A stretch of DNA of 64,000 bases from Microbacterium sp. CH12i (GTDB lineage: Bacteria > Actinomycetota > Actinomycetes > Actinomycetales > Microbacteriaceae): NCBI RefSeq assembly GCF_000685355.1, contig NZ_JHET01000003.1:248001-312000 (forward strand). Direction: 5' to 3'. The translations under genes were made by a program, and so were the position numbers. The notes beneath the pieces were generated by a model. It saw only the letters and a program-made list of their open reading frames with translations. It ran no database searches and was not told the origin of the DNA. Positions 3,149 to 55,370 of this stretch are shown here, piece after piece. Each line of letters begins with the position of its first letter. Position 1 is the stretch's first letter.

Positions 3149-4542
3149 TTAGCGACCCGACGAGTATCCTGCGCGGCCGCCCTGCGAGCGCTGACCGCCC
3201 GAGGAACGACCCTGTCCAGCGCGCTGCGGCTGGCCGCCCTGTCCGCCCTGGGCGGGATGAGGACGACGGCGACGTGCGGGTGGAGCTGAGCCGTCTGAAC
3301 GCTGCTGAGAGGCCTGGCGGGGCTTGCGAGGCTGCTGGGTCTGCTGGGCCTGCACAGGAGCCGGACGCACGTGCTCGGCACGCTCTCCGACGAGCTCGTT
3401 CACGATGTTCGCGTTGACATCCTCAAGGGCGGCAGAAATCTGCGCCTTGCGCAGGAGGTCCTTGACGTCGCGACGCTGCTCGGGCAGAACCACCGTGACA
3501 ACGGTTCCAGCTGCGCCGGCGCGTGCGGTGCGGCCAGAGCGGTGCAAATATGCTTTGTGCTCCATCGGCGGGTCGACGTGAACGACGAGGTCGACGTTAT
3601 CGACGTGCACGCCACGAGCGGCGACATCGGTTGCAACGAGCACACGTACGCCACCATCTGCAGGATCGGCCGAGAACGCGCCGAGGTTGCGCTCACGTGC
3701 ATTCTGCGACAGGTTGCCGTGCAGATCGACGGCGGGGATGCCGGAGGCAGTGAGCTGCTTTGCGAGCTTCTTCGCCTGGTGCTTAGTGCGGGTGAAGAGG
3801 ATGCGACGGCCGGTGCCGGAGGCAAGATCGCGCACGAGCGAGGTCTTGTGCTCGGTGGAGGTGGTGACGAGGACGCGGTGGATCATCTCGCCGACCGGCA
3901 CACTGGACTCGTCGACCTCGTGGCTGATCGGGTTCGAGAGGAAGCGGCGTGCGAGCGAGTCGATGCCGCGGTCAAGCGTCGCGCTGAACAGCAGACGCTG
4001 TCCGCCGGCGGGTGTCGCCGTGAGAATACGAGTGACACCGGGGAGGAAGCCGAGGTCGGCCATGTGGTCGGCCTCGTCCAGCACAGCAACCTCGACCGAG
4101 TCCAGGTTGACGACCTTCTGCTTCATGAGGTCTTCGAGGCGGCCAGGGCACGCGACGACGATATCGACGCCGCCGCGAAGCGCCTGCTCCTGTGGGCGCT
4201 GGCTGACGCCACCGAAGACGGTGGTGACGCGCAGGCTACGGCGGCGGCAAGTGGTGCGACGACCGCAGCAATCTGCGTGGCAAGCTCACGAGTCGGCGCG
4301 AGAATAAGGCCGCGCGGGTGGCCGGGACGGCTCTTGCGTCCTGAGTCCGTCAGACGAGCAACGAGCGGGATGGCGAAAGCGATGGTCTTGCCGCTTCCGG
4401 TACGACCGCGACCGAGGAGGTCGCGACCGGCGAGGGAGTCGGGAAGCGTGTCGCGCTGGATAGCAAAAGCTTCGGTCTTGCCTTCGGCAGCAAGGACCGA
4501 TGCGAGGGGCGCAGGCACGCCAAGTTCAAGGAAAGTGGGCAT
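3149..4542 (-). CDS. DEAD-box RNA helicase, RhlE-like (one frameshift as given)
   Basis: ATP-dependent RNA helicase, about 464 aa after repair. Motifs in order: Q-motif (AFAIQRDTLP), motif I GRGRTGSGKT, motif Ia PTRELATQ, then after the break motif II LDEADHM, motif III FSATLD, motif V VATDVAARGVHV and motif VI HRSGRTARAG. The tail is basic and rich in Arg, Gly and Gln (RNA binding). At about 4,235 the frame breaks: upstream ends ...VAPLAAAV and downstream continues in the next frame through the VACPGRLEDL region. One base added there (GGC to GGCC) restores a continuous helicase. The start is ATG 4542 with GGAG 8 nt before it. A leader of about 170 nt precedes it, as is common for cold-inducible helicases, so post-transcriptional control is possible. 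Confidence 0.8.
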
Positions 4543-4716
4543 AAAAATACTCCATGAGCGCGCGTCAATACGCGCGATAGTTTGATGGGCGACCGCACAC
4601 AGGAAGTGCGCAGAGGTTCGCCGTTCGAAACGCCAACTGGTGGAGGAGCTGTGCAGCTCGCTTCGATCTAAAAAGACCCCGTGACGACGACGTAGCTGCC
4701 CAAAATCAATCTGGAC
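4543..4716 (-). promoter_or_regulatory. Long 5' leader of the DEAD-box helicase gene
   Basis: Between the probable TAGGCT -10 box (4726-4731 on this strand) and the ATG lie about 170 nt without a gene. The leader holds a small GC hairpin at 4559-4576 (7-bp stem, CAAT loop) next to the ribosome-binding site and a GGGGTCTTTTT tract near 4671-4681 that resembles the end of an attenuator. Cold-inducible DEAD-box helicases elsewhere have long structured leaders; the comparison is inference. Confidence 0.4.
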
Positions 4717-4725
4717 AACTGTCCT

Positions 4726-4731
4726 AGCCTA
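4726..4731 (-). promoter_or_regulatory. Putative -10 box of the DEAD-box helicase (TAGGCT)
   Basis: Reading leftward, GCTAGGCTAGGAC holds two overlapping TAGGnn hexamers about 185 nt upstream of the helicase start. This is the only good TAnnnT site in the gap between dapD and the helicase. Confidence 0.4.
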
Positions 4732-5728: not shown

Positions 5729-6803
5729 ATGCTGCTCGATCTGACTGCGTCATCCATCGATCTCACCCGTGCGATCTGCGATATCCCGAGTGTCTCCGGC
5801 GACGAAGCGCTTCTCGCCGACACGATCGAGGCCACCGTTGCGGGACTGTCGCACCTCGAGGTCATCAGGCATGGCAACACGATCGTCGCCCGCACGAACC
5901 TCGGTCGTGCTCAGCGGGTGGTGATCGCCGGACATATCGACACTGTCCCGATCAACGAGAACCTGCCGACCCGCGACATCGACGTCGACGGCGAACCGCA
6001 CCTCTGGGGTCGCGGCACCGTCGACATGAAGGCCGGTGTCGCGGTGCAGCTGAAGCTCGCAGCCGAGCTCACTGCGCCCGTGGTCGACATCACGTGGATG
6101 TGGTACGACAACGAAGAGGTCGCGGCATCTCTGAACGGACTCAATCTGCTCTCTGCTGACCGGCCGGATCTCTTCGCGGCCGACTTCGCAATTCTCGGCG
6201 AACCGTCGAACTCCCAGGTCGAGGGCGGATGCAACGGCACGCTGCGCGCCATCGTTCGCACCCGGGGGTGTGCGCGCCCACAGCGCCCGTGCGTGGATCG
6301 GCGAGAACGCGATTCATGCCGCAGCCCCGATTCTCGCGCGTCTTGCGGAGTACCGCGCCAAAGAGGTGTTGGTGGAGGGCCTGGCATACCGCGAGAGCCT
6401 CAGCGCCGTGCGCATCAGCGGCGGCATCGCCGGAAACGTCATTCCGGATCTCTGCGAGGTGGAGGTCAACTATCGATTCGCGCCGAGCAAAACAGCGGCG
6501 GATGCCGAGGCGCATGTCCGCCGGGTGCTGGGTGGCTTTGAGGTCGAGATCACTGATTCTGCCGAGGGTGCGCGGCCGGGCTTGGACGCCCCGATCGCTC
6601 AGCAGTTCGTCGCTGCAGTAGGGGCTGAGCCCCTTCCCAAGTACGGCTGGACTGATGTCGCGCGCTTTTCAGCGCTCGGCATCCCGGCTGTGAACTACGG
6701 TCCCGGCGATCCTCATCTCGCCCACCACGATGAAGAACGTGTGCCGCTCGCTCAGATCGACGCGGTAGAGCAGGGCCTACGAGCGTGGCTCACCGCGCCC
6801 TGA
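5729..6803 (+). CDS. dapE: Succinyl-diaminopimelate desuccinylase DapE (one frameshift as given)
   Basis: M20-family zinc peptidase, about 357 aa after repair, which removes succinate from N-succinyl-LL-diaminopimelate. Metal-site motifs are GHIDTVP (His and Asp), [10 protein letters not shown] (bridging Asp) and the acidic pair in YDNEEV; the histidine near the end is in [13 protein letters not shown]. At 6264-6268 a run of five G shifts the frame: the upstream frame gives IVRTRG and the downstream frame resumes with [16 protein letters not shown]. Four G would join them exactly. Loss of dapE would block peptidoglycan synthesis, so an extra G from sequencing is the likelier reading. Confidence 0.85.
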
Positions 6804-8384: not shown

Positions 8385-9019
8385 TCAGTCCGTCTTAATG
8401 CTGACCAGCTGCAGCAGGCCTTCACCAGCCGTGGAAATCGCCGCGAGCACCGCAGGCGACTCCTGAGTTTCCTGGATGAGCGAGCGGTAAGCCGTGGTGA
8501 TTGCGTCACGCTGCACCGGGTCTGCCGTCTTGCCGCCGGCGAGCACGCGCGGAACGAGCACGATGCCACCAGTGCGGGCCAATCGCAGACCATGTTCGAC
8601 ATACTCGATGACGTTTTCTGGATCGGCATGACGAGCACGATGTCGTACGACGCCTCGTTCATGCGCGGCAACACATCGGCAGCACGACCGGTGATGAACC
8701 GTGCCTTCGTCGACGGGATCTTCGCCTCGCTGAAGCTACGCCGTGCGGCGACAAGATGCTCGGGCTCATTGTCGATAGAGGTGAGCACAGCCTGAGGCGC
8801 GCCACGCATCAGCCAAAGCCCGGAGACGCCAGCGCCCGTGCCGATCTCGACGATCGAGCGGGCGTTGGTCGCAGCTGCCAGAACGGCGAGCTGCGCACCC
8901 ACCGCAGGGCTGACCGGAGCTGCACCCAACTCGACCGCGTGTGCGCGAGCTCGTGCGATGGTGGCGGGCTCGATGATCGCCTCGCGGATGTAACGTGCGT
9001 TCGCGTCGTTCTCGCTCAT
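8385..9019 (-). CDS. O-methyltransferase family protein (one frameshift as given)
   Basis: SAM-dependent methyltransferase of about 211 aa after repair, similar to the class I O-methyltransferase family (methyltransf_3). Motif I is IVEIGTGAGVSGLWL; an acidic residue follows in TSIDNEP; YDIVLVDADP is the metal/SAM motif after repair. At about 8,629 one base is missing: the given frame reads YDIVLVMPIQK, and one G restores YDIVLVDADPENV and then LARTGGIVLVPRVLAGG. The start is ATG 9019 (MSENDANARY) with GGGAGCAGG upstream; an earlier in-frame ATG at 9064 lacks a site. The substrate is unknown. It lies head to head with tatB. Confidence 0.8.
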
Positions 9020-9094
9020 GACCCTGCTCCCGTGGAATTGCTGCTTCCACCAGAGTATTCGCATGCCGCGGCTGAGGAGGCCAGGCGCGGCGGG

Positions 9095-11185: not shown

Positions 11186-11751
11186 GTGCGTCGGCGGCGC
11201 GGTGCGGTCGAAATCGGACCAGTCTTAGGATCGGGGGCAGAGAGAATGTCATCGTCGTTCTCGTCGCCGAGACCAGCCAGCATCGCCTTGAGTTCTTGCC
11301 GCAGCACGTCGCGCGTCACCGTCTGAGAGTTGCGCTCCTCCAGAGCCATGCGCAGTGCGACGATCTCGCGCGCGAGGTACTCGGTATCGGCGAGGTTGCG
11401 CTCAGCGCGCTGACGGTCCTGCTCGATCTGCACCCGGTCGCGGTCATCCTGGCGGTTCTGCGCGAGCAGGATGAGCGGAGCAGCGTACGAGGCCTGCAGC
11501 GAAAGCATCAGGGTGAGGGCGGTGAAACCGAGGGCAGCATCATCGAAGCGCACCGGTTCCGGCATCAGCACGTTCCAGCTGAGCCACGCCACGCAGAACA
11601 GCGAGAGGATGAGCAGGAAAGTGGGGGTGCCCATCGCGCGGGCAACCCACTCGGTGAAGCGGCCGAAGCGGTCGCGAGATGGCGCGGGGCGCTGGCGTGC
11701 GGTGCTCCGACCGAGGGGAGCGTCGAGGGCGGAGCGGTCCGGCTTGGCCAT
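11182..11751 (-). CDS. DUF1003 membrane protein
   Basis: 189 aa. A basic N-terminus precedes two membrane helices (GTPTFLLILSLFCVAWLSWNV and GFTALTLMLSLQASYAAPLI) joined by a short loop, then a charged coiled-coil region (NRQDDRDRVQIEQDR...) and a basic tail. This is the DUF1003 layout. Function is unknown, but DUF1003 genes commonly follow MgtE-like CBS proteins in actinobacteria, as here. The ATG at 11751 overlaps the upstream TGA by one base; a TTG one codon earlier is possible. Confidence 0.85.
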   Translation of the reverse strand: MAKPDRSALDAPLGRSTARQRPAPSRDRFGRFTEWVARAMGTPTFLLILSLFCVAWLSWNVLMPEPVRFDDAALGFTALTLMLSLQASYAAPLILLAQNRQDDRDRVQIEQDRQRAERNLADTEYLAREIVALRMALEERNSQTVTRDVLRQELKAMLAGLGDENDDDILSAPDPKTGPISTAPRRRRT

Positions 11752-13018
11752 CAACGTGCACCTCCCTTTGCGGCAGCGTCGGCGTCAGCATCCTGTGTGC
11801 GCCAGTCATCAGGCAGCAGGTAGTCGAGCACATCGTCGATGCTCACCACGCCGACCAGGCGGTTAGCCGCATCGACCACGGGTAGCGACACGAGGTCGTA
11901 GCTGGCGAGAAGTCGAGCGGTCTCCGCCGCAGATGCCGTCACGGAGATGGGTTCCATCGTCTCGTCGACAATGGCGCCCAGACGCTCGTGCGGTGGGTAG
12001 CGCAGCATCCGTTGGAAGTGTACGACCCCCAGAAGCCGGCCAGTCGGGGTCTCGAAAGGGGGAAGCGTCACGAAAACCGCAGCGGCAAGTGCTGGATGCA
12101 GTTCGTGTCGACGGATCAGAGCGAGAGCTTCAGCAACGGTGGCATCGGCGGAGAGAATGATCGGCTCGGTCGTCATGAGACCACCGGCAGTATCTGGTCC
12201 GTACCGGAGCAGGGTGCGCACATCTTCGGCCTCTTCGGGCTCCATGAGTTCGAGGAGGTGTTCCAGACGCTTCTCCGGAAGCTGCGCGAGCAGGTCGGCC
12301 GCGTCGTCCGGCTCCATCTGGTCGAGGATGTCGGCGGCGCGTTCATCGCCCAGGCGGTCGAGGATGCTGACCTGATCGTCCTCGGGCATCTCCTCAAGAG
12401 CATCGGCGAGACGGTCGTCCGATAGCTCGCCAGCAACCTCGATCATCCGCTGCTCTGGCAAATCGAGAAGTGTCGTGGCGAGGTCGGCCGCATGCAGCTC
12501 GGAGTAGGACGCGACAAGCTGCTCGGCAGACTGCGATTCACCAGGCGCGCGCTTCTCTGCGACTTCGCTCCACGCGGCAAACGTCGTCGGTCCCTTGGCG
12601 AAGGGCGAGGCGCTCGTTTTCGGCTTGCGCAGGAACAACTGACCGACGTTCCACTCGCCGAGGCGGTTCGGCTCGATGGCGACATCTTCGATCACTGCGC
12701 TGCCGCTTCCGTCGCGAGCTCGACGCGCCGGCCGAGCAACTCGGCGAGCACACGTACCTCGCCAGGGCGCGGCTGGAAGCGTCGCACGTTAATCAGCCCG
12801 GTGGTGAGGACCTGTCCTGACCGAATTGACGTGACACGTCCGATCGACATGAACACCTGGCGCCGCCCGGGAATCTCAATGACGAGACCGATCACGCGCG
12901 GCGAGACCGTACTTCGGTACACGATGACGACATCTCGGACCTTGCCGAGCCGGTCGCCTACGGGGTCGAAGACGGCGCAGCCTGCCAGGCGCGCGACGAA
13001 AACCCGTTGTGTGCTCAC
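11751..13018 (-). CDS. PRC-barrel / MgtE_N / CBS-domain protein (one frameshift as given)
   Basis: About 422 aa after repair: a PRC-barrel-like N-terminal domain (residues 1-108; VFVARLAGCAVFDPVGDRLGK), an MgtE_N superhelix with the repeated LPEDD/MEPDDAADLLAQLPE acidic pattern, and two CBS motifs ending VVSIDDVLDYLLPDDWR. There is no MgtE membrane channel domain, so it is not a transporter alone; it is probably a cytosolic Mg2+- or nucleotide-sensing partner of a membrane protein such as the downstream DUF1003 protein. The frame breaks at about 12,703 (upstream ends TEAAAQ-stop, downstream continues SAVIEDVAIE); one extra base restores it. GTG 13018 follows a TACGCT box by 6 nt. Confidence 0.8.
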
Positions 13019-13024
13019 GCGTCC

Positions 13025-13030
13025 AGCGTA
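13025..13030 (-). promoter_or_regulatory. -10 box of the PRC/MgtE_N/CBS operon (TACGCT), leaderless geometry
   Basis: TACGCT is followed by GGACGC and the GTG at 13018. It supports the N-terminal start in the PRC domain and hence the view that the two frames are one gene. Confidence 0.55.
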
Positions 13031-13073
13031 GTCTGCAGACCCATGATCTCGGGCTGCTGACGAGCGCACGTGG

Positions 13074-13079
13074 GACAAT
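13074..13079 (+). promoter_or_regulatory. -10 box of the GSP17M-like gene (GACAAT), leaderless geometry
   Basis: GACAAT is followed by 6 nt (GGATAT) and ATG at 13086. It is divergent from the mgtE-like operon promoter 44 bp away. Confidence 0.5.
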
Positions 13080-13085
13080 GGATAT

Positions 13086-13868
13086 ATGAGCATGTTGAAC
13101 CGTCCTGCAGGCAACACAGCTGTCGGCGACACCGTCGCTTCGATGCGCGATTACGAGAGTGCACAAAAGACGGTGTCGAAGCTGATCGCCGGCGAAGTTC
13201 CGGCCCGCGACATCGCGATTGTCGGTCAGGGTGTGCGCACGATCGAGCGCATCACCGGCCGACTCGGGTACGCGGCTGCGGCCCGTTCTGGCGCCGTGAA
13301 CGGTGTGTTGATCGGTCTGCTCCTCTCCGCAATCCTGGTGATCGGCAACCCAGACGTGCCGATGCAGCTGTTCGTTGGCTTCGTGTTCATCGGCGTCGCG
13401 CTGGGAATGATCCTGAGCCTCGTCACCTACGCGATCGTGCGCCGCCGCCGCGATTTTGCGAGTGTCACACAGCTCGCCGCCGACCACTACGAGGTCACCG
13501 TGCAGGCGGCGTCGTTGGCGAAGGCTCGCGGTCTGCTGGGAACAGGGCAGCGCACAGAGGTCGTGCATCCGCCCGTCAACCTCGATGAGCCGCCGCGCTA
13601 CGGCGAGCGCGTCACTCCCGGTACGAATCCTCAGGATTCTGCCGTGGGTGGAGGTCCTGCAAGCGAGACAGAACGCATTGGTGAGCACGTCATCCCGCCG
13701 CGCCCGGCTGATCCGGTGCCGCGGTACGGCGAGCGAGTGCCGGATGCCGATGCTCCGGCGCCTGCGCAGAAGGAGGCTGCCGCGGGCACTGACGGACGCG
13801 AGTCGGGAGCGTCCTTCGCCGAGCCATCCGGCGACGACAACGGCGCGGCTGCCGATGAGCGTGCCTGA
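13086..13868 (+). CDS. General stress protein 17M-like membrane protein
   Basis: 260 aa. Residues about 15-60 match the GSP17M/YflT fold seen at the N-terminus of such actinobacterial proteins (ASMRDYESAQKTVSKLIAGEV). Two membrane helices (about 70-88 and 92-118) with a glycine-rich zipper pattern and a very basic loop (VRRRRDF) follow. The C-terminal 100 residues are disordered, rich in Pro, Asp and Ala, and carry two copies of PRYGERV (about 170-176 and 212-218). Function unknown; a stress-linked role is inferred only from the family name. Confidence 0.7.
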   Translation: MSMLNRPAGNTAVGDTVASMRDYESAQKTVSKLIAGEVPARDIAIVGQGVRTIERITGRLGYAAAARSGAVNGVLIGLLLSAILVIGNPDVPMQLFVGFVFIGVALGMILSLVTYAIVRRRRDFASVTQLAADHYEVTVQAASLAKARGLLGTGQRTEVVHPPVNLDEPPRYGERVTPGTNPQDSAVGGGPASETERIGEHVIPPRPADPVPRYGERVPDADAPAPAQKEAAAGTDGRESGASFAEPSGDDNGAAADERA

Positions 13869-14733: not shown

Positions 14734-15857
14734 CTAGACGTCGTAGTCGACGACGACCCGCTCGGTCGTCGGGTGAGATTGGCAGGTCAGCACGTAGCCA
14801 CGCTCGAGTTCGTCGGGCTCGAGCGCAAAGTTCTGCGTCATCCGTACAGCGCCCTCAACGACGCGTGCGCGGCACGTTCCGCACACACCCCCGGCGCACG
14901 CGAACGGCACATCGCCACGCACTCTGAGCGCAGCATCCAAAATCGCCTCGTTCGCCGAGATAGGTGACTCGACGACCGATGACAAACCGTCGAGAGTGAA
15001 CTCAATTGAATACGTCTCATCGTCAGGATTGGTTTCGATGGGTCGGCCTCGGTCGACGCGCGGTTCATCGGCATCGGTCGTGAACAGTTCGAAGCGGATA
15101 TTTCCAGCATCCACGCCACGACGCTCGAGCGCATCTCTGCACAGCGTGACGAGATCAAATGGCCCGCACAGGAACCATTCGGTCACCGAAGACGGCGGCA
15201 CCAGCCGGTCGAGGATCGCATCGAGCTTCTCGGCGTCGATACGGCCAGATAGCAGCGGCGCCGCACGCTGCTCACGCGAAAGCACATGGTGCAACGCGAG
15301 GCGCGCGGGGTAGCGATCCTTGAGGTCAGCGAGATCCTCGAGGAACATCACATCCTGCGTCGCGCGATTCGTATAGATCAGCGAGAAGCGTGCCGTGGGC
15401 GAGGATGCCAGCACCGATGCCGCGAGCGACATCATCGGCGTGATACCTGAGCCTGCGGCGATGCCGACGAGGTGTGCGTGATCCAAATTCGGAAGGTTCG
15501 AGGTGAACTTGCCCTCCGGGCTCATCACGTCGATGCGGTCACCCGGTGCGAGGTGTTCGTGCGCCCAGACCGAGAAGATGCCTCCCCGGTCGCGTTTGAT
15601 GCCGATGCTGATGAACCCCGGGGTGGGCGGGCGGCAGATTGAGTAGCTGCGGCGCACTTCGTGCCCGTCAACATGAGCGCGCAGCGCCACGTACTGACCC
15701 GGCAGGTAGTCGTACTGATCGTGTAACTCTGGCGGCACAGCGAAGGTGACCTCGATGCTCTCCGACGTGAGCGGACGCACCTCGGCGCCTCGAGTTCGTG
15801 GAAGCGCGCGCGGCGGCGGGTGGGGGTTGCGGCGATGGCGGTGGATGCGGTGTTCAT
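14734..15857 (-). CDS. paaE: Phenylacetyl-CoA epoxidase reductase subunit PaaE (one frameshift as given)
   Basis: About 374 aa after repair. An FAD-binding ferredoxin reductase domain (RRSYSICRPP flavin motif, then GIAAGSGITPMMSL and FLCGPFDLV for NADPH) is followed by a C-terminal plant-type 2Fe-2S ferredoxin (CAGGVCGTCRARV, last ligand in LTCQSHP). It passes electrons from NADPH to the PaaABC(D) di-iron epoxidase. The start is ATG 15857, overlapping paaD by 4 nt. At about 15,785 the frame breaks: upstream reads ...RARFHELEAP and downstream EVRPLTSESIEV. One more base (GGC to GGGC on the + strand) joins them. Confidence 0.85.
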
Positions 15858-16351
15858 AAGACTTTGAAGTGGTCGAAGGGTTCGAGACACGCGCGGCACT
15901 CGAACAGGGCCTTGCAGGAGGTCGATCCGAAATGGGCGACCTCTTTGGTGTCGAGAGACCCGCAACGCGGGCATTTGACGGCGAGACGAAGCCGAATGAT
16001 GCCGCTGCCGAGCGACGCCCGCCCGGTGGGCGGAGCAATACCGTATGCGGTCAGTTTTTGTTTTCCGGCATCCGTCATCCAGTCGGTCGTCCAGGCTGGT
16101 GAGAGGGTCGTGCGCACCTCGACCGTGCCGTAGCCGGCGTGATTGAGCGCGAGGATGACGTCATCGCGCATCGTATCGAGCGCCGGGCACCCGCTGTACG
16201 TCGGAGTGAGAGTCACGACCGCGCGGTCACCTTCAACCTCGACCGCGCGCAGTACGCCCAGGTCTTCGATCGTGAGCACCGGCACCTCGGGATCGGTGAC
16301 GGTCGCAGCGACGGTCCAGGCGTGCTCCTGGGAGTGTGTGAGGTTCACCAT
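15854..16351 (-). CDS. paaD: Phenylacetyl-CoA epoxidase accessory protein PaaD
   Basis: 165 aa. A MIP18/DUF59-type domain (TDPEVPVLTIEDLGVLR, then TLTPTYSGCPALDTM) is followed by a C-terminal zinc-ribbon-like segment with CPRCGS and CRACLEPF. PaaD is needed for epoxidase activity and is thought to help mature a metal or Fe-S centre, probably of PaaE. It overlaps paaC by 7 nt and paaE by 4 nt, consistent with coupled translation. Confidence 0.9.
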   Translation of the reverse strand: MVNLTHSQEHAWTVAATVTDPEVPVLTIEDLGVLRAVEVEGDRAVVTLTPTYSGCPALDTMRDDVILALNHAGYGTVEVRTTLSPAWTTDWMTDAGKQKLTAYGIAPPTGRASLGSGIIRLRLAVKCPRCGSLDTKEVAHFGSTSCKALFECRACLEPFDHFKVL

Positions 16352-28108: not shown

Positions 28109-28114
28109 GAACCC

Positions 28115-29609: not shown

Positions 29610-29615
29610 TAGCGT
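29610..29615 (+). promoter_or_regulatory. -10 box of adnA (TAGCGT), leaderless geometry
   Basis: TAGCGT is followed by 7 nt and ATG at 29623, which sets the adnA start; the frame is open further upstream. Confidence 0.55.
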
Positions 29616-29622
29616 GGATGAC

Positions 29623-32600: not shown

Positions 32601-32858
32601 GAAGGCGCTGATGCCGGAGCTCTTGCGGGAGCCCGCCTGCTGCTCGTTGCCAACACGCTGTCGGGAAGTGACTATCGCGTTGCGCATCAGCACACGCTGC
32701 AAGGCGAGGCGCGCACACGGTTCCTGAACAGACTCGCCGCCGCAGCCAAGGGGATGTCGGGTGACAGCTTCACCGCACACGTTGAGGCACACTGCGCTGA
32801 TGTGCAGTGGCGCGTGCACCCCTGCCGCATCCACACCGTGCCGGCGGTCAGCGCATGA
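29623..32858 (+). CDS. adnA: AdnA-like helicase-nuclease subunit (one frameshift as given)
   Basis: About 1,078 aa after repair, the AdnA-type partner of the double-strand-break resection motor. An N-terminal UvrD-like motor has Walker A GAPGTGKTQT but a weak Walker B (LIDDAQEV in place of DExQ), consistent with the non-lead motor. The C-terminal RecB-type nuclease has HEAME, EVEFRF, GFIDRV, VVDLKTGK and QLAAYQ, with cysteines in FEECELNW and near the end that fit a 4Fe-4S cluster. The frame breaks at 31141-31144: upstream ends ...AAEQVK and downstream continues TIHELLWRIWDTAR; one more A joins them. Its end overlaps adnB by 4 nt. Confidence 0.85.
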
Positions 32859-35800
32859 CCGCGTGGAACGACCAGGGCCCCGCGCTCTCGGCGCTTGAGG
32901 TAGCGGCAGCGCTCGGACAACCACCGCCCACGGCTGCCCAGCAGCGCGTCATTGAAGCTCCGCCCACGCCTGCCCTCGTTGTGGCCGGTGCGGGCAGCGG
33001 AAAAACCGAGACGATGTCTGGCCGGGTTGTCTGGCTTGTCGCCAACGGCCACGTGCGACGCGACGAGATTCTGGGGCTCACGTTCACGCGCAAGGCCGCC
33101 GGAGAACTCGCCGAGCGGATTGCCGCGCGGCTCGCGGTGATTGACGAGTACGGTCAGCGCGGACTCTTGGCGCATGTGCCGGAGATCGTCGCCTCGGGCG
33201 CCCTACGCCGGGTAGACGACGCCGCGGCAGGACCGCAACGCGCACTGGTGCGCACGCATGTGCTCGATGAACTCTCCACGCGATTCGACACAGGATGGGA
33301 CCCGACCGCCCCGCGCACGGCGGAAGACCTCATGATCCGCCCCCGTGTGTCGACCTACAACGCGTTCGCTGATTCGATCGTGCGCGAGCATGCCGCACGG
33401 ATCGGGCGCGACCCCGATGTGGCCATGCTCAGTCAAGCCGGGTCGTGGATGCTCGCCCGCGAGGTCGTGTTGCGTGCCGACCTGCCTGAGCTGGAAGACA
33501 TCGAGTACGCGGTCGGCACCGTGGTCGACGCGGTACAGCGACTCGCGGGAGACTCACTCGATCACCGGGCGGACCTCTCCCAAGCGGAGCGGATCGTACG
33601 GGAGCAGGCGCGGGCATTCGAGCCTTATCGGAGCAGCAGCGACATCGCGAAGGTCGCCGACAACCTGCTCGCTCTGCCGACGCTCACTGCTCTCGTCCGC
33701 GAGTACATCGCCGAAAAGCAGCGCCGTGGTGTGCTCGACTTCGCCGACCAAGTGAGCGGTGCCTACGACATTGTCGAGTCATCGCCAGAGGTGCGTGCCG
33801 ATCTGCGCGAGCAGCACCGGGTGGTTCTGCTGGACGAATACCAGGACACTTCGGTGATCCAGACCGAGTTCCTCGCCGCAGTCTTCCGAGACTCGGCGGT
33901 GATGGCGGTGGGCGATCCGCATCAGTCGATCTACGGCTGGCGCGGTGCCAGCGCCGACAACCTGTATGCGTTTTCGCGCACGTTCTCTCGGGATGCACCG
34001 GCACAGAGCTACAGCCTGATGACGAGTTGGCGCAACGACAGCGCGATCCTCGGCATCGCCAACCGTGTGCTCGAACCGCTCCGGCGACCGGGCCTTGCGG
34101 TTCCGCCGCTGGAGGCCCGACCAGGCGCAGGTGAAGGTGCAGTCGACATCCGTTATCCGCTCACGGTGCATGAAGAAGCAGCGGAGGTCGCGGAGTGGTT
34201 CGCTGAACGCCGTGCCACGCACGCCGCGACGCATACCGCCGGAGCGACGCCGCACACCGGGGCAATCCTGTTCCGATCCAAGCGGCATATGCAGACCTTC
34301 GCTGAGGCGCTCGCAGCTCGCGGCATCCCGCGCCGCATTCTCGGTCTCGGCGGACTGCTGGCAACGCCCGAAGTCGTTGACGTCGTCTCTGCGCTCCGCG
34401 TGATGCATGATCCGAATGCCGGGTCGGCTCTCATTCGGCTGCTCGTCGGTCCGCGCTTCGGCGTCGGCGTCGCCGATATGGGGGCGCTGTACGATCTGGC
34501 GTCTGAACTGTCGCGGCGCGACAGCGGGCTGCTGCCGCTGCCAGACGAATTGCGCGCACGGATCCGCTCCTCGCGGGGGGCGGACGAGGCGGTTTCCATC
34601 GTCGACGCTGTCGATGTGGTGCGCAGCCTTCGCGACGACTACCGGCTCATCCAGAGCATCACGACCCCGGGCCGCGCACGAATTCGAGCGGCGGGCGAGA
34701 TGCTGGAGCGTCTCAGACGCGCGTCCGCTCAGCCCATTCCTGAGCTCATCCGGCTCATCGAGGTCGAGCTCCGGCTCGACATCGAACTCGCGGCCAATGA
34801 GACCCGCGGGCCCGCGCGAGTCGCCGCGACCCAGCTGCGCGCCTTTGCCGATGAAGTGCGTGCGTTCCTGTCCGCAGATCAACGCGGCACGATCTCGAGC
34901 CTGCTGGCCTGGCTCGAGAAGGCGGAGAGCACCGACGAGCTGATGCCGCGCCCAGAACCGCCAGAGCCGGGCGTAGTGCAACTGCTGACGATCCACGGCT
35001 CCAAGGGCCTCGAATGGGACGCCGTCGCCGTGGTGCGCATGGTTGAGGGTGAGCTGCCGTCCCGGCCGACCGACACGTCGGGCTGGTTCGGGTTCGGAGT
35101 GCTGCCATTTGCGCTCCGCGGTGACAGTGCGGCGCTCCCGACCTTCGTGTGGGATCCGCCCGCCGACGACGAGCCTGACCCGGCCAAGCGGCTCAAGGCT
35201 GGCGTCGCCTCTCTGACGAGCAAAAGCAAGAACGCGCCCGGGGCGCTCACGGTCTTTAAAGACGCGTACCGCGACTACCAGCAGCAAGAAGAGCGTCGGC
35301 TCGCGTACGTCGCCGTCACACGCGCGCGCACCGATCTGCTCTTGAGCGGATCACACTGGGCAGGACAGAAGAGTCCCCGCGAAGCGGGGGCATACCTGCG
35401 CGAGGCGATCGAGGTGCTCGGTCTCGAGCCGCTCGCCCAAGTCGAGGAGGACGAAAACCCGTACGCGGGGGAGGGCAAGACCAGCGTGTGGCCGCTGGAT
35501 CCTCTGGGCGGACGTCGTGCCGCGGTTGAAGATGCTGCCGCCCTTGTGCGAGCGGTTCCAGGCGAACCGCGCCGGCGCCGACCGTCCAACTAGAACGCCT
35601 GCTCGTCGAGCGCGCCGAGCGACAGCGGGGCATCAGGGCAGAGCCGCCGGCGCGAGTGCCTGCCTCGAAGTTCAAGGACTATGTCACCGATTTCGATGGC
35701 ACGGTGCGGGAACTGAGCAGGCCCATGCCCGAACGGCCGTACCGGCAGACCCGACTCGGGACGCTGTTTCATGCGTGGGTGGAACACCGCTCAGGTCTCG

Positions 35801-36279
35801 TCGGTGCAGCGCCGAGTCCGGAAAGTGCGCTGTGGGAATCGGACGATGAACAGCCGGATCCGTGGAGTGCATCCACTGCCGACGAGGCCGACCTGGAACG
35901 CCTGCGCGAGATCTTCGAACACAGCGAGTGGGCGATGCGCCAGCCCATCGCCGTAGAAATAGAAATCGACTTCGTGCTTGGTTCGCACATAGTCATCTGC
36001 AAGCTCGATGCGGTCTACCGACGCGAAGACCGCGGCGACCGGATTGAGATCGTCGATTGGAAGACCGGCAAGGCGCCGCGCAACGCCGCAGAACGGGAAG
36101 AGCGGATGCTGCAGCTCGCGCTGTACCGCCTCGCCTATCACCGCAGGTTCGATGTGCCGCTGGATGACATCGATGTCGCGCTGTACTACGTCGCCGACGA
36201 CCTTGTCATTCGCGGCGACCGGGTCTACTCGGAGGAGGAGCTCGTCCAGCGCTGGAGTGCGGCTCGCGCCGCGCGCTGA
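32855..36279 (+). CDS. adnB: AdnB-like helicase-nuclease subunit (frameshift near the nuclease domain as given)
   Basis: About 1,141 aa after repair, the lead motor of AdnAB. Motor motifs: GAGSGKTETM, TFTRKAAGEL, LLDEYQDTS, GDPHQSIYGWRGA, STNW-like SLMTSWRND, HGSKGLEWD and VAVTRARTDL. The nuclease domain has FHAWVEHR, EIEIDFVLG, CKLDAVY, IVDWKTGK and QLALYRLAY. Between about 35,520 and 35,600 the frame shifts by a net -1 just before a stop at 35591; the other frame resumes QLERLLVERAERQRG and PASKFKDYVTDFDG. Without repair the product lacks its nuclease. The 3' end overlaps the convergent phosphotransferase gene by 55 bp. Confidence 0.85.
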
Positions 36280-37548: not shown

Positions 37549-38429
37549 ATGACTGTGCGACGTGCTTTGTTGGATCGCGCAGGACACCTCCGCGATGAAC
37601 CCGGGATCATTGAGGCACTGCGATCATCCGCCGATGCTCGTGTGATTGTCGTCCGTGAAGGACGTGTTCGCATTGAGAACGCCGCCCTGGTCACCGCGAA
37701 ACCTTCCGAGGTCGGGGACGCAGAGTGGGCACTGCTCGGGCGGCACAGCGACGGCAGTACGCTGCTGCTCGCAGCAGTAGGGCCCCTGCTCGATACCATC
37801 GATGCGGCCCCCGCCGAGACCTGGCTCGGGCTACGCGATACCGGTGGCCTCCTCGATGTGGAGAACACTGAGCTGCTCGTAGAGGCGATCGCGCTTGCGT
37901 CCTGGTTGCGAAGTGGGCGCTTCTGTCAGAACTGCGGGGCTGAGGCTGAATTGCGCCAGGCCGGTTGGTCACGGCATTGCCCGTCATGCGGCGCGGACAT
38001 CTTTCCGCGCACAGATCCCGCGGTGATTGTCGCCGTCGAGAGTGATGATGGCGAACGACTGCTGCTGGGCGCGAACGCGAACTGGCACGGCCGGATGTAC
38101 TCGTGCTTTGCCGGATTCGTCGAAGCTGGCGAATCGCTGGAGTTCACGGTGCACCGTGAGATCGAGGAAGAGGCCGGAGTGCGCCTGGACTCGGTCCGCT
38201 ACATCAGCTCGCAGGCGTGGCCGTACCCCCGCTCGCTCATGCTGGGCTTCCGTGCGACCGCATCCAATGAACGTCGTGCTCGTCCGGACGGCGAGGAGAT
38301 CATCGATGTTCGCTGGTTCACTCGTGAAGAGATCGGCAGTGCTCTGAAGGCAATGGTCCCGTGGGGTTGCCGGGACCGGCATCCATCGCCAGAGTCCTCA
38401 TCGAGGGCTGGTACGAGGAACGGGCGTGA
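37549..38429 (+). CDS. nudC: NAD+ diphosphatase NudC (one frameshift as given)
   Basis: About 293 aa after repair. NudC hydrolyses NAD(H) and can remove NAD caps from RNA 5' ends. The zinc ribbon is FCQNCGAEAEL with HCPSCGADIFPR; the Nudix box is GFVEAGESLEFTVHREIEEE, and SSQAWPYPRSLM is the NudC-specific SQPWPFPxS motif. At 38352-38353 a missing A breaks the frame (given: LKAMVPWGC; repaired: LKANGPVGLPGPASIARVL), after which the product ends at WYEERA. The TGA at 38427 overlaps the GTG start of uvrD2. Unrepaired, the frame would run to 38757. Confidence 0.87.
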
Positions 38430-48807: not shown

Positions 48808-50008
48808 TCAGAACTCGGCCGCAGCCAACCGTCGTGAGGCCTCTTCGAGCACGTCTACGCGCTTGCACGCAGCGAACCGCACGAGTCCGGCGTAGTCGCC
48901 TGGTGCTCGGGGCTGACGAACGCGCTCAGCGGGATCGCGGCGACTCCGGCAACCTCCGGCAGCGCTCGGCAGAAGGCCGAGGCGTCCGCCCCGCCGAGGG
49001 CGGTGGCGTCGGCGACGGTGAAGTAGCCGCCCTGCGGCGCGATCACATCGAACCCGGCGGCATTGAGCCCTGCGCCAAGAATGTCGTGCTTGCGAGCGAG
49101 GGTCGCCGCGGCATCCGTGAAGAAAGAATCCGGCATCCGCAGCCCCACGGCGATCGCCGGCTGAAAGGCCGAGCCGTTGACGTACGTGAGGTACTGCTTC
49201 ACGGTGAGGACCGCGGTGATGAGGTCGGCAGGACCGTGGATCCAGCCGATCTTCCAACCGGTCGTCGAGAACGTTTTGCCGGCCGACGAGATCGTCAGCG
49301 TGCGTTCGGCGGCGCCCGGCAGCGTCGCGATCGGAACATGCGGCTGAGTGAACGTGAGGTGTTCGTACACCTCGTCCGTGACGATGATCGCGTCGTGCTC
49401 GTGCGCGAGCCGGACGAGCACTGCTTGCACCTCTGGTGTGAAGACCACACCGGTCGGGTTGTGCGGGTCGTTCACGAGGATGATGCGGGTGCGATCGGTG
49501 ACGGATGCCGCGAGCACCTCAAGATCAGGCTGAAAACCTGGGCGGCGCAGCGGGACGGTGCGAAGGCGCGCACCCGCCAGCGCCACCGCAGCCGCATACG
49601 AGTCGTAGTAGGGCTCGAAGACGACGACCTCGTCGTCGGGGGAGTCAATAAGTGCCAGTAGCGTCGCGGTCAGCGCTTCGGTTGCTCCGGCGGTCACGAT
49701 CACCTCGGTGGCCGGGTCGACATCGAGACCGTAAAACCTCTGCTGGTGCTCGCTGATCGCCAGGAGCAGGTCAGGCACCCCGCGCCCTGGCGGGTACTGA
49801 TTCATGCCTTGCGAAATCGCTTCGCGAGCCGCCTCGAGCACTTCGATGGGACCATCCTCATCGGGGAAACCCTGACCGAGGTTGATCGCTCCAGTTCTTA
49901 TCGCAGCCGCAGACATCTCTGCGAAGATGGTGGGCGCGACAGCGCCGTCGGCAGACAGGAGGCCGGCTCCAGCCGCGGTGCGCCGCCAGCGCCGGGAATA
50001 GCACTCAT
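48808..50008 (-). CDS. Fold-type I aminotransferase, kynurenine/methionine type (two frameshifts as given)
   Basis: About 400 aa after repair. Motifs: GAINLGQGFPDEDGP, PPGRGVPDLLLAI, VTAGATEALTATLLAL, NDPHNPTGVVF, TDEVYEHLTF and SSAGKTFSTTGWKIGW with the PLP lysine. Two single-base losses disturb the ends: near 49,990 (MSAIPGA joined to WRRTAAGAG) and at 48899-48900 (SPEHQ joined to GDYAGLVRFAACKRVDVLEEA). A TAGCCT box 7 nt before ATG 50008 supports the first repair. Likely substrates are glutamine, methionine or kynurenine with 2-oxo acids; undecided. Confidence 0.82.
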
Positions 50009-50015
50009 GCAAACC

Positions 50016-50021: not shown

Positions 50022-50106
50022 AGGCCATAGCAGACACTCACCTTCACCATATTGAACGCACAGCTACGACGGGCACTCTGAAGGAACGTTGTTGAAGGAG
50101 CGGACC

Positions 50107-51529
50107 ATGAACGAAGACAACATCCCCAACGGGTCGACCTCGCCCGAGCAGCCTGCACCGCAGCGCCCGCTGGCGCCGGCCACGACATGCCTGCGTCGTT
50201 CGCGTCGCATGCTGCCAGCCCACTCACCCCCGCGGCGCCGAGCGGTCAGCCGCAGCACCCGCCGTACGTGCCTCAGGGCGCGGCATTCGGCGTGACGCCA
50301 GCTCCGATCGAGACGAAGACCAAAGAGAAGAAGCCGTTTGGGGCCGGTAAGGTCGCAGCCCTCATCGTCGCCGCCTCGCTCGTTGGTGGCGCCGCCGGTC
50401 TCGGCACCAGCTACCTCGGCAACACCCTCTGGGCGCAGCCACCAGCTCCACAGCCTCGGGTCCTGAGGCCATCACGGTCAACAACCCAGGCTCGGTCAAT
50501 GAGACGACGGCTATCGCTACGGCGGTACTTCCTTCGGTCGTCACGATCGAAGTTGCGGGCGACACCGAGTCCGGCAGCGGATCGGGCGTCGTCCTCAGCA
50601 AGGACGGCTACGTCCTCACCAACACGCATGTCGTCACGCTGGGCGGTGCCGCAGCGGATCCGAAGATCCGGGTCACGTCGTCTGACGGCCACATCTACGA
50701 CGCCACCATCGTCGGCACCGACCCGATCTACGACCTTGCAGTCATCAAGCTCGATGGTGCAAAAGATTTGACGCCGATTGACTTCGCAGATTCGTCCAAG
50801 CTCAACGTCGGTTCCACGGCGGTGGCTGTGGGGGCCCCGCTGGGGCTGTCGAACTCGGTGACCACAGGCATCGTCAGTGCGCTGAACCGCAGTATCCAGA
50901 TTGCCTCCTCTGCGCTACCGGATTCGTCGGCACAGGACGCTCCTCCGCAGGATCAGAGCACACCTGGCCAGGAGAGCAGCCCGTTCCAGTTCGACCTCCC
51001 GGGAACGCAGACGCAGAGCGCAACGAAGTCGATCTCGATCGCGGTGATCCAGACGGATGCTGCGATCAACCCCGGAAACTCGGGTGGCGCACTGGTAGAC
51101 AGCGAGGGCAAGCTCATCGGTATCAACGTCGCCATCGCGACGGCGGGTAGTACGGGCGAGTCCGGGTCGATTGGCGTGGGTTTCGCCATTCCGTCGAACA
51201 TCGCCGAGCGCGTCTCGAAGGAGATCATCGCCGACGGTACGGCCACCCATGGTCTTCTCGGCGCATCCGTGCAGGATGCCTCGAGCGTGGCCGGCGCTCA
51301 GGTATCTGGCGCGTACATCGCTGAGGCAACCGCAGGCGGCGGTGCCGAGAAGGCGGGCCTCAAGAACGGCGATGTCGTTACCGAGTTCAACGGCGCGCCG
51401 ATCTCGAGTGCGAGCGACCTCACCGCGCAGGTGCGTGCGGCCGCGGCCGGCAGCGACGCAAAGCTGACGTATGTTCGCGATGGCAAGTCTCAGAGCGTTG
51501 ATGTGACGCTCGGTGAGCTCAGCCTCTGA
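50107..51529 (+). CDS. HtrA/DegP-like trypsin-fold protease with PDZ domain (two frameshifts as given)
   Basis: About 474 aa after repair. A Pro-rich cytosolic N-terminus precedes one membrane helix (VAALIVAASLVGGAAGLGTSYLG), then a trypsin-like domain with the triad His in VLTNTHVV, Asp in PIYDLAVIKLDG and Ser in NPGNSGGALVD, and a C-terminal PDZ domain (GGGAEKAGLKNGDVVTEFNG). The frame breaks at 50180-50181 (PLAPA joined to HDMPASFA) and at about 50,445 (WAQPPAP joined to TASGPEAITV); both need one extra base. The start ATG 50107 has AAGGAG upstream. This is the actinobacterial PepD/HtrA family, acting on misfolded exported proteins. Confidence 0.87.
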
Positions 51530-51569: not shown

Positions 51570-51612
51570 GAAGGACGCCACCCCGCGATAGGCTCGCGGG
51601 GTGGCGTCCTTC
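51570..51612 (+). terminator. Terminator hairpin overlapping the next gene's promoter and start
   Basis: A perfect 19-bp stem (51570-51588 with 51594-51612) lies 40 bp after the htrA-like stop. The loop TAGGC is five of the six bases of the next gene's -10 box, and the GTG start at 51601 is inside the 3' arm. Confidence 0.8.
51589..51594 (+). promoter_or_regulatory. -10 box of the first CDP-glycerol transferase-like gene (TAGGCT)
   Basis: TAGGCT is followed by CGCGGG and GTG at 51601. It lies in the loop of the upstream terminator stem. Confidence 0.6.
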
Positions 51613-52853
51613 TCGTTCGGCTCCGGCAATGCGGCCAAGTTACTGCGCATTCCGTTGTATGCCGTCGGGCGCATAGGTACCCTTCTCCTGCCGCGCGGGC
51701 AGCGATGGGTATTCGGCTGCGGCGCCGGGATCGGCGATGGCGCACTCGCACTCTGGCGCGTCGCGACCCGCGAGGGGCATGACGCCGTCTGGCTCACGTC
51801 ATCGGACCGCGAGCGAGCGGATGCTGCGGCGCTCGGCATCCCCACAATCGTGAAGTCATCACTGCGAGGCTGGTGGGCGACTGCGCGCGCGGGAGTGCTG
51901 GTTGTCACCCACGGGCTCGGAGACGTCAACCGCTACGCGGTCTCTGACGGCTTCGTCGTGCAGCTGTGGCACGGGATTCCCCTCAAGCGGATCGGCCTTG
52001 ACTCGCCGGCAACCACCCAGGTGCCGAACGTGCCGGGTGCCGCCGCGTTGCGACGTATCGTCGGACTGCTGTACCGAGGCGCCGCGCAGCGCATTCGCGT
52101 GCTGCCGGCGGCATCGGATCGCTCACGTGGACGGCTGGAGTCAGCCTTCGCCCTCGGCGACGCACGCGTCGTCGTGACCGGCGAGCCTCGCGCAGACGTG
52201 CTGTCGAGCGGTACCAGCGAAGGGCGGCGGCAGGCAGCATCCGCTCTGCTGACTGACATCGTCGGCGCGCTGCCTGAGGGCGCCCGCACGCTGTTGTACG
52301 CGCCTACCTGGCGTGACGGTGCGGCGGATCCCTCGGTGCCGACGGCATCCGAATGGGTGCGTCTGATCGCACTGCTCGAATCGCACAACACCGTGCTGCT
52401 CGTGCGCTCGCACCCGCTGGGCGCCGGCGAATATCAACCACCGCTGCGAAGCAGACGAGTGCGGATGCTGGGATCCGACGTCCTTGCGGACGTCACACCG
52501 GCGCTCCCGGCGATCGACGCGCTGATCACTGACTACTCGTCGCTGGCCTACGACGTCGGGCTGCTGGCCATGCCGGTGCTCTATCTCGCCGCCGATGCCG
52601 AGGAATACGCTCGACGCGCGGCTTTTACGGCCGATACGAGGATGTCGCTGGCGATGATGTCGCAGCGGACTGGACGGCGCTTCTCGATCAGCTCGAGTCG
52701 ACGCTCACCGACGAGCGCGTGTTCACCGATCGGGCCGTGCGTTCCAGTACGCTCAGCGCACAGATGCATGCATATCGGGATGGGCAGAACACCCGCCGTG
52801 TGTACCAAGTAATCCGCGCGCGGGGGATCCTCGCGCCGAAGGGAGCACGATGA
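51601..52853 (+). CDS. CDP-glycerol glycerophosphotransferase family protein 1 (one frameshift as given)
   Basis: About 417 aa after repair, TagB/TagF-like GT-B fold that would transfer glycerol-phosphate or a similar alditol-phosphate to a wall polymer. Motifs are VVQLWHGIPLKRIG (catalytic His), TLLYAPTWRDG, VLLVRSHPL and IDALITDYSSLAYD. The frame breaks near 52,618: given YARRAAFTAD, repaired YARRxGFYGRYEDVAGDD, then ending ARGILAPKGAR. Its stop overlaps the next ATG by 4 nt. The membrane anchor is weak; peripheral membrane association is typical. Confidence 0.8.
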
Positions 52854-54285
52854 CGACCGTCCGCATCGATGAGCAGGCGGAGACGCTGATCATTGCAGGT
52901 ACGGGCACGAAGCCCGCCACCGGATCGCTTGCGGGGCCCAGGCGCGCGTCGACGCGACGATCACCGGCGGTGGCAAGACCTGGAAGGCAGCATTTCCACT
53001 GCGCGCGCCGCGTTGGGGTGGCGAGGCTCTGCCGCTTCCTTCCGGCGACTATGAGCTTCAACTGGATGGCGTCGAACTCGACGAGCTGGAAATCGGTCCG
53101 CAACTGCTTCCCACGCTGCGGATCACTCAGCATGGTGCGCACGTCGACATCGCACCGCCGCTCGCTCCCATCTACGAGACGGCTGAGGGTCAGGCGACCC
53201 TTGAGGGGCGCTACGTCGCTCGGGCAGGTGGCACCGAGAACGCCGTGTTCTTCGAGAGCTTCTACGGCCAGAGCGTCGGCTGCAACCCCCGCGCGATCGA
53301 TCGGGAGCTTGCTCTGCGCGCACCGAACGTGACGCGGTACTGGAGCGTGGTGGATCTGTCCGTCGCGGTGCCTGAGGGAGCAATCGCCGTGGTCGAAGAC
53401 AGCCCGGAGTGGTGGCGCGCACGAGGCGCCGCACGGCTGCTTGTCGTGAACGACTGGTTGCGCAGGCGCTTCGTCCGAAAATCGGGTCAGAAGGTGCTGC
53501 AGACGTGGCACGGGACGCCGCTCAAGCGTCTCGCCCTGCATCGTCCAGGATTCGCGCCGAGGCGGATGGCCGCCGTCATCAAAGAGTCGCGCCGCTGGGA
53601 CGTGCTGCTTGCGCAGAACACCTACTCCGAGCGGGTGCTGCGGAAGGCTTATGCATTCTTCGGCAAGCCGATCTGGACCGACGGCTACCCGCGCAATGAC
53701 GTCCTCTCCACCGAAGACGGCTCAGCAACGCGCAAGGCGCTGGGCATCGGGGTGGACGAGCGGGTGCTCCTTTACGCTCCGACATGGCGCGACGACCGCA
53801 GTGAGATCGTCGACTTTGTCGACCCGCAGCGACTCGCGGAGCAGACCGACTCTGTGGTGCTGGTTCGTGGGCACTCGCGAACCCTGCGCCCAGGACGCGA
53901 TCACTCAGGCGCGCGCGTCATTGATGTGACGGGCTACGCCGAGACCGCACAACTGTTGCTCGCCGCTGACGCGCTGATTACGGACTACTCGTCGGTGATG
54001 TTCGACTTCAGTGTGACCGGCAAGCCGATGTACTTCTTGGTGCCCGACCTTGACCACTACCGTGGTGAGCTGCGCGGCTTCTACTTCGACCTTGCCGAGC
54101 GGGCGCCGGGGCCTTTGCTCACGTCGCAGGACGAACTGGCGGACGCGCTGATGGATGACAGGCTGCCCGGTGCCTTCGCCGAGCGCTATGCCGCTTGGCA
54201 GAAGCAGTTCAACACCCGTGATGATGGCCATGCCGCCGAACGGGTGGTCTCCCGGCTGCTGGACCTCGGCTTCGTGAAGGCGTAG
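52850..54285 (+). CDS. CDP-glycerol glycerophosphotransferase family protein 2 (one frameshift as given)
   Basis: About 478 aa after repair. An N-terminal beta-rich domain of some 130 aa (TLIIAGTGTKPATGSLAGAQARVDATITGG after repair) is followed by the transferase domain: ENAVFFESFYGQSVGCNPRAI, VLQTWHGTPLKRLALH, LLYAPTWRDDRSEIVD, VVLVRGHSR and ADALITDYSSVMFDF. At 52933-52936 a GGGG tract needs one more G. The two adjacent paralogues suggest a polymer built in two steps or with two linkages. Confidence 0.82.
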
Positions 54286-54295
54286 ACGGACCCCG

Positions 54296-55370
54296 CTACG
54301 GCAGCGGCGTGTTCTGCGTGCCGAGGCGGGACGCGTCGACCGTGTCGCGCGCGCCACGCAGGACGCCGCCGATGAATCCGAGCCCCCACGCGACGTGCAT
54401 GGTCGGCAGTACGGCGAGAGTCCAGAGCCGCTCGCGCGGAGTTCTTCCGCCACCGGGACGAAGCCCCATCATCACGACAAGCAGTGCGTAGGCCACTAAT
54501 GGCAGGTAGACGACGGATGCCACGAGCGAAGCGATTCCGGTGAGGACGCGCGTGAGCTGCAGCACCGCGACGACGAGTGCGAGCACGAGGTTCAGCACCA
54601 GCGCCGGCGGGGCGAAGAACCGCAGACCGTTGCTTCGTCCGTAACGTCGCACGAGCTCGCCGCGCCAGGCTCCTGTCGCACGGAACTGTCGCGCCAGGCG
54701 CCACCAACTCTCGCGCGGCCAGTACGTCACCGACAGCTGCGGGTCCAGCCAGACCTTGTGTCCGGCCTGGCGGATGCGCAGATTCAGTTCCCAGTCTTCG
54801 CCGCGACGGATCGACTCGTCAAACAGTCCGACCTCTTCGAGCACGGAACGACGCATGACGCCCAGATAGGCCGACTCTGCCTCACCCTCGTGCGTGGTGC
54901 CGTGATAAGCCCCTCCGCCGAGACCAACGGGGGGAGTTATATGCGCGGGCAACTGACTTCTGGAAGGGTGTGCGGCCGTCGGCGCGCATCACACCTCCGA
55001 CGTTCGCAGCCCCGGTACGCGCCAGCGTCGCGAGCGCACGCTGCGCGTAGCCAGGGGAGAGCTCGGAGTGCGCGTCGACTCGGACTATCGTCTGGTAGCG
55101 GCTGGCGCGGATGGCGGCGTTGAGGCCGACCGGGATATGCGCCGCCGGATTGTCGACGAGACGAATGCGGGGATCATCCGAAGCGAGCCGCTGCGCGAGC
55201 TCGGTGGTCCCGTCGGTCGATGGCCCCAGGGCGAGCACGAGCTCCGCCGGACCCTCCACTTCCTGGTCCAACACCGAGGCGACGGCGTGCTCAAGGTATC
55301 CGCGCTCGTTCAGAACAGGCATGACGAACGAGACTCCGCCGGACGGTGTTGTCGAATCGTTCTCTTGCAC
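54296..55370 (-). CDS. Family 2 glycosyltransferase with C-terminal membrane segments (one frameshift as given)
   Basis: About 357 aa after repair. The N-terminal GT-A domain has SFVMPVLNERGYLEHAVAS, LALGPSTDGTTE and TIVRVDAHSEL (the DxD-like DAH). After the break it continues VGLGGGAYHG, FDESIRRGEDWELNLRIRQ (catalytic ED) and three or four membrane helices. At 54929-54934 a run of six G needs to be five: upstream RAYNSP joins VGLGGGAYHG. It converges on the second glycerophosphotransferase gene with a 10-bp gap. The GTG start at 55370 is the best guess (CATGAT box 6 nt upstream). Confidence 0.78.

What the first reader, a model, noticed from the sequence alone, without database searches (positions are those of the whole stretch)
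3149..55370. About 16 single-base frameshifts in 13 genes: probable sequence errors, not gene decay
Breaks occur near 4235, 6264 (+1), 7878, 8629, 12703, 15785, 31141, 35520-35600, 38352, 48899, 49990, 50180, 50445, 52618, 52933 and 54929 (+1). All but two are net one-base losses and several lie in runs of 2-6 identical bases. In each case the other frame continues the same family with matching motifs. dapE, adnA, adnB, nudC, htrA and others cannot all be dead in a genome whose neighbouring genes are intact. The annotation of this window should be repaired before use.
Basis: partly seen in the sequence, partly recalled or inferred. Interest (0 to 1): 0.7.

Follow-up and report, generated by a model that had tools for sequence, protein, structure and literature searches.

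The report
Assembly errors mimicking broken genes
Fourteen genes in this stretch of a Microbacterium genome are split by single-base shifts, but breaks of the same kind also split genes that a bacterium needs to live and hit genes simply in proportion to their length, so they are most likely sequencing or assembly errors and not lost genes.

Summary
The sixteenth (near 50180, variable N-terminal part of htrA) is inconclusive.

The reading as sequence error is strongly supported and reaches beyond the window. In 200.9 kb of conserved coding sequence from two contigs the caller finds 63 breaks in 51 of 184 genes; random hits by length predict 50.5 genes. The single-copy essential genes rpoB, rpoC and aspS are split the same way; dnaE is intact. 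Codons beyond a break are as constrained as in intact genes. The caller's rate in 79 other Microbacterium loci is about one tenth.

A weak association with CCGG and GCC codons is unexplained.

No reads were available, so the error itself is inferred. It is an ordinary artefact, but a truncated AdnA from this contig already stands in a protein collection.

The parts
3149..4542 (-). DEAD-box RNA helicase, frame break near 4235-4238 (net loss)
   Evidence: DEAD in one ORF, DEAD plus Helicase_C in the other; 2 relatives
5729..6803 (+). dapE (TIGR01900), frame break near 6264-6269 (net gain, in a run of five G)
   Evidence: 2 relatives with one 357-aa ORF; 120 of 120 listed homologues 348-377 aa
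6785..8001 (+). conserved gene without a Pfam match, frame break near 7878-7889 (net loss)
   Evidence: 2 relatives
8388..9064 (-). methyltransferase gene (O-methyltransferase-like), frame break near 8628 (net loss)
   Evidence: 2 relatives
11751..13132 (-). MgtE_N/CBS gene, frame break near 12713 (net loss)
   Evidence: 2 relatives
14734..15860 (-). paaE (TIGR02160), frame break near 15787, close to its start (net loss); upper end approximate
   Evidence: 5 of 5 relatives
29467..32858 (+). adnA-like helicase-nuclease, frame break near 31134-31139
   Evidence: UvrD-helicase in one ORF, UvrD_C and PDDEXK_1 in the other; 3 relatives
32807..36276 (+). adnB-like helicase-nuclease, frame break within 35557-35600
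   Evidence: PDDEXK_1 in the second ORF; 3 relatives
37549..38426 (+). nudC-like gene (NUDIX, zinc ribbon), frame break near 38348 (net loss); end approximate
   Evidence: 6 of 6 relatives; the uvrD-like gene behind it is unbroken
48811..50012 (-). aminotransferase (Aminotran_1_2; nearest NCBIfam model PRK07777, below its cut-off), frame breaks near 48900 and 49989 (net losses)
   Evidence: 3 relatives
50106..51526 (+). htrA-like serine protease (Trypsin_2, PDZ), frame break near 50443 (net loss); a second near 50165 inconclusive; start approximate
51601..52850 (+). glycerophosphotransferase (PF04464), frame break near 52613 (net loss)
   Evidence: 3 relatives
52850..54282 (+). TarF-like glycerophosphotransferase (PF04464), frame break within 52923-52944 (net loss)
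   Evidence: 3 relatives
54299..55370 (-). family 2 glycosyltransferase, frame break near 54929 (net gain, in a run of six C)
   Evidence: 3 relatives

Best explanation
The single-base frame breaks in this window are most likely residual consensus errors of the genome assembly, found at about 0.3 per kilobase of conserved coding sequence in the two contigs sampled, and the living Microbacterium would carry these genes intact. Shown by calls: the breaks are in the sequence; relatives keep one open frame across them; breaks hit genes in proportion to length; they also split rpoB, rpoC and aspS; codons beyond a break show undiminished constraint. Inferred: that the cause is base calling or consensus building on error-prone reads that were not corrected with accurate ones. 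The platform is unknown and no read was seen.
For: rpoC, rpoB and aspS have no other full copy and are split in this genome: rpoC into two pieces with 7 of 7 relatives in one piece; rpoB into two pieces with 3 of 4 relatives in one piece, the fourth cut by contig ends; aspS into two pieces with 4 of 4 relatives in one piece; each is a one-base loss against two relatives. That all three are essential is established knowledge. 51 of 184 genes broken against 50.5 expected from length alone. Spacing along the contigs is that of chance: variance/mean per 5 kb 0.96 and 0.93. Mismatch ratio of codon position 2 to 3 is 0.196 in intact genes, 0.201 before and 0.187 after a break. 30 of 35 breaks with two relatives in C3 and 19 of 21 in C10 are net one-base losses. 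The control rate is 0.028 per kb against 0.30 here. The scale, 28% of sampled genes, is like the 23.3% pseudogenes of an uncorrected long-read assembly in PMC12007338 (abstract and passages seen).
Against: No reads were seen. Homopolymer enrichment, the usual mark of long-read errors in the two papers seen, is absent for runs of three or more (17 of 56 against 28%) and slight for runs of four or more (7 of 56, about 4 expected). Besides 63 frame breaks there are 14 in-frame stops with conserved flanks in 10 of 184 genes; by position at least three of these genes look like wrongly framed reference ORFs, the other seven were not examined. dnaE and a second gene of its family are unbroken, which the rate allows. 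Mismatches are slightly more frequent within 40 codons of a break (0.17 to 0.20 against 0.15).
Confidence: 0.96

Rival explanations
1. Genuine gene decay: the lineage is losing these genes through real one-base frameshift mutations, perhaps under a raised indel rate.
For: Breaks are in the sequence in all relatives compared; 14 in-frame stops with conserved flanks were also called.
Against: rpoB, rpoC and aspS cannot be lost by a living bacterium. Constraint beyond breaks is undiminished, and breaks spare no class of gene: observed 51, expected 50.5. dapE and many other housekeeping genes are hit.
Confidence: 0.02
2. Programmed frameshifting or another recoding: the ribosome or polymerase shifts frame at these places and makes full-length proteins.
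For: Both pieces of several genes keep family domains, as recoding would need. Two net gains lie in runs of five and six identical bases.
Against: Relatives have one open frame at these places. Fifty-six two-relative breaks share no fixed signal: the best 4-mer, CCGG, lies at scattered distances.
Confidence: 0.01
3. A chimeric assembly of several related strains, with frame breaks at the joins.
For: The genome is a draft in 21 contigs with an estimated 2.46% contamination.
Against: Divergence from relatives is much the same before and after a break and only slightly raised near it; most breaks are one-base losses. Joins would not prefer one base.
Confidence: 0.01

Closest known systems
Gene-fragmenting indel errors of uncorrected long-read bacterial assemblies (PMC12007338 and PMC8011154; abstracts and passages seen)
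   Same: One-base indels split many genes genome-wide; the share of broken genes is similar (23.3% annotated pseudogenes in one draft of PMC12007338, 51 of 184 sampled genes here); losses prevail after some polishing steps in PMC8011154.
   Different: Both papers place most such errors in homopolymers; here runs of three or more are not enriched in the sequence as given. The platform of this assembly is unknown.
Locus L068, Microbacterium sp. Se63.02b, a record titled complete genome (NZ_CP050453.1)
   Same: 8 frame breaks in 16 kb of the same adnB neighbourhood by the same caller.
   Different: Another genome; its breaks were not examined one by one, and their density is higher than here.

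Membership tests
Residual consensus indel errors of an assembly, any platform | One-base frame breaks where relatives keep one open frame | tested here: met
   15 of 16 window breaks
Residual consensus indel errors of an assembly, any platform | Breaks fall without regard to gene function, essential genes included | tested here: met
   rpoB, rpoC, aspS split; dnaE intact; 51 of 184 genes against 50.5 expected
Residual consensus indel errors of an assembly, any platform | No loss of constraint beyond the break | tested here: met
   position 2/3 mismatch ratio 0.187 after, 0.201 before, 0.196 intact
Residual consensus indel errors of an assembly, any platform | Accurate reads lack the change | not testable with these tools
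   no reads held
Homopolymer-type nanopore or PacBio errors | Breaks enriched in runs of identical bases | tested here: not met
   run of 3 or more: 8 of 35 and 9 of 21 against 28%; run of 4 or more: 4 of 35 and 3 of 21 against 7%, slight excess; runs shortened from two to one would not show
Gene decay (pseudogenes) | Relaxed constraint and nonsense changes beside frameshifts | tested here: not met
   constraint unchanged; 14 in-frame stops against 63 frame breaks, at least three of the ten genes likely misframed references
Gene decay (pseudogenes) | Essential genes are spared | tested here: not met
Programmed frameshifting | Break and signal conserved in relatives | tested here: not met
   relatives have one open frame; no shared signal at a fixed place

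The most novel reading that the evidence does not exclude
The breaks are errors of a special kind: they mark places where the native DNA is chemically modified, so that the mistakes of the assembly trace a modification pattern of this Microbacterium. CCGG lies within 12 bases of 23 of 56 breaks against 17% for simulated losses, and GCC is the relatives' codon in 18 of 97 reference codons at 49 break sites against 5.1 expected.
Probability: 0.1. Interest if true: 0.35.

Novelty: not a real feature. Interest (0 to 1): 0.12.

Why it matters
It changes no biology, but it decides how this genome may be used. 51 of 184 sampled conserved genes are split, so claims of gene loss, pseudogenes or separate domains drawn from this assembly would be false, and a completeness estimate of 96% gives no warning. 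A 598-aa AdnA fragment from this contig already stands in a protein collection as a protein of its own.

Tried and rejected
Homopolymer origin: rejected as the main cause. Clusters of substitutions around breaks, as in thinly covered spots: aa mismatch 0.17 to 0.20 within 40 codons against 0.15 beyond, from 47 gene-by-relative alignments with one break; little difference. A single modified motif at a fixed distance: CCGG came up first in C3 (15 of 35 against 16.7%, nominal p 2e-4 among 229 4-mers), was then tested on fresh breaks of C10 (8 of 21 against 16.0%, p 0.012; 8 of 23 with all clusters, p 0.02), against simulated losses (23 of 56 against 16.9%) and against other codons of the same genes (20 of 49 against 18.1%); but it lies at scattered distances, so no mechanism follows. 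CGC at the break on the gene strand: 15 of 49 against 8.3% simulated. Codons of relatives at the break: GCC 18 of 97 against 5.1, no clear longer motif. Predicted folding near breaks: no difference.

A call at 25443 seen with three relatives was set aside by inspection: it lies between two genes facing apart, where the relatives' ORF runs antisense to the next gene. It and the pair 26642/26580 are nevertheless inside the counts of 35, 56 and 63 and of 6 in 20.3 kb.

Rows dropped before counts: reference ORFs under 80 aa and conserved segments under 70 aa; alignments with identity under 0.55 or 0.60; breaks with fewer than 12 codons on a side or flank identity under 0.4; genes cut by a locus end. 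35 of 48 break clusters in C3 and 21 of 23 in C10 had both relatives. C3 from about 328 kb on aligned no conserved gene. The sign of a cluster is that of its first row. The search listings show 120 of 6493 and 120 of 874 hits and admit only a range of lengths around the query.

The search over 59 genomes for paaE served to fetch relatives. The plasmid search and the record behind its first hit gave nothing of use. The paper search was seen as a listing only.

Full report
What the window is. It is positions 248001-312000 of contig C3 (401 kb) of a 3.35-Mb draft genome in 21 contigs, estimated 96.4% complete and 2.5% contaminated. The AdnB-like protein at 32807-35593 is 88% identical to that of Microbacterium murale and 83% to those of M. 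sp. Bi121, M. aerolatum and M. ihumii, so the organism is a Microbacterium; the scan showed no nearer relative, though records very near the window's genome may be left out of it.

The breaks. I predicted ORFs in syntenic stretches of M. sp. Bi121 (G038), M. aerolatum (G039) and M. ihumii (G040) and aligned each to the window with a dynamic-programming aligner that allows frame shifts. The break near 50180 in htrA stays open. The genes are a DEAD-box helicase, dapE, an unnamed conserved gene, a methyltransferase, an MgtE-type gene, paaE, adnA, adnB, nudC, an aminotransferase (two breaks), htrA, two glycerophosphotransferases and a glycosyltransferase.

Not a local matter. The same method on C3 88001-392000 gave 48 break clusters, 35 of them with both relatives, 16 inside the window and 19 outside. 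On C10 1-320000 it gave 23 clusters, 21 with both relatives. With G038 alone and identity of at least 0.60, the two contigs give 63 breaks in 200.9 kb, 0.314 per kb. If the whole genome is alike and about nine tenths coding (assumed), that would mean some 900 breaks.

Why they are errors. First, rpoC, rpoB and aspS, needed by every bacterium (established knowledge), are each split by a one-base loss against two relatives (names), and no second full copy was found. Relatives have them in one frame: 7 of 7 for rpoC, 3 of 4 for rpoB (the fourth is cut by contig ends), 4 of 4 for aspS. dnaE, searched in the same way, is intact, as chance allows for a gene of 3 kb at this rate. Second, 51 of 184 genes are hit where length alone predicts 50.5; by length class (under 0.6 kb, 0.6-1.0, 1.0-1.5, above) 6, 14, 16 and 15 genes are broken against 4.8, 12.0, 17.8 and 15.9 expected. 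Spacing along the contigs is that of chance. Third, codons beyond a break are as conserved as those before it and as those of intact genes. Fourth, in 79 Microbacterium loci around adnB the caller finds 32 events in 1150 kb, eight of them in one record titled complete genome, against 6 in 20.3 kb here. That own figure includes 25443 and the 26642/26580 pair, which may not be errors; without them it is 3 in 20.3 kb, still about five times the control rate.

What did not fit. In the sequence as given, runs of three or more near breaks are as common as at random coding positions, and runs of four or more are only slightly in excess; the two net gains in the window do sit in runs of five and six. 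A run of two cut to one would not show in this measure. Fourteen in-frame stops with conserved flanks were called beside the 63 breaks, in 10 genes; three of these genes are by position misframed reference ORFs (window 6100-8001, 36468-36999, 38216-40144), seven were not examined. There is a mild association with CCGG that repeated on fresh data (p 0.012) and with GCC codons in relatives. I have no mechanism for it and give the modification reading one chance in ten.

Relation to print. Abstract and passages of PMC12007338 and PMC8011154 describe the same kind of damage: 1234 pseudogenes, 23.3% of genes, in one draft long-read assembly, 1101 of them by frameshift only; and 151 to 5298 pseudogenes after one polishing pipeline where the true genomes had 12 to 136. 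The scale here agrees; the homopolymer mark that both papers stress does not. I cannot name the platform.

Consequence. Of the 120 AdnA homologues listed (of 874), 119 are 1068-1117 aa long and one is the 598-aa fragment on a contig of 401193 bases, the length of C3. For dapE all 120 listed (of 6493) are 348-377 aa; the nearest is 92% identical, so no intact copy from the same species was seen. The annotation should be flagged, and repair should come from reads, not from relatives.

Noticed in passing
26578-26642: Two opposite frame shifts about 60 bases apart in the low-complexity tail of a DEAD-box helicase (26428-28170, minus strand), against three relatives.
   Followed up: partly
breaks in C3 88001-392000 and C10 1-320000, window included: Breaks lie near CCGG more often than expected (23 of 56 against 17%), repeated on a second contig, but at scattered distances.
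   Followed up: yes
about 13900-22400: A phenylacetate degradation gene cluster (paaE, PaaD-like, PaaA_PaaC, an aldehyde dehydrogenase fused to a MaoC domain) sits where the syntenic stretches of M. sp. Bi121, M. aerolatum and M. ihumii align no gene.
   Followed up: no
29467-31419, protein P0121: The truncated AdnA of this contig is held as a separate 598-aa protein in the protein collection.
   Followed up: no
L068 (NZ_CP050453.1, Microbacterium sp. Se63.02b): A record titled complete genome with 8 frame breaks in 16 kb around adnB by the same caller; probably also error-laden.
   Followed up: no
51601-56710: Three PF04464 glycerophosphotransferase genes and a glycosyltransferase in a row, probably a teichoic-acid-like cluster; the third PF04464 gene (55421-56710) is unbroken.
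   Followed up: no
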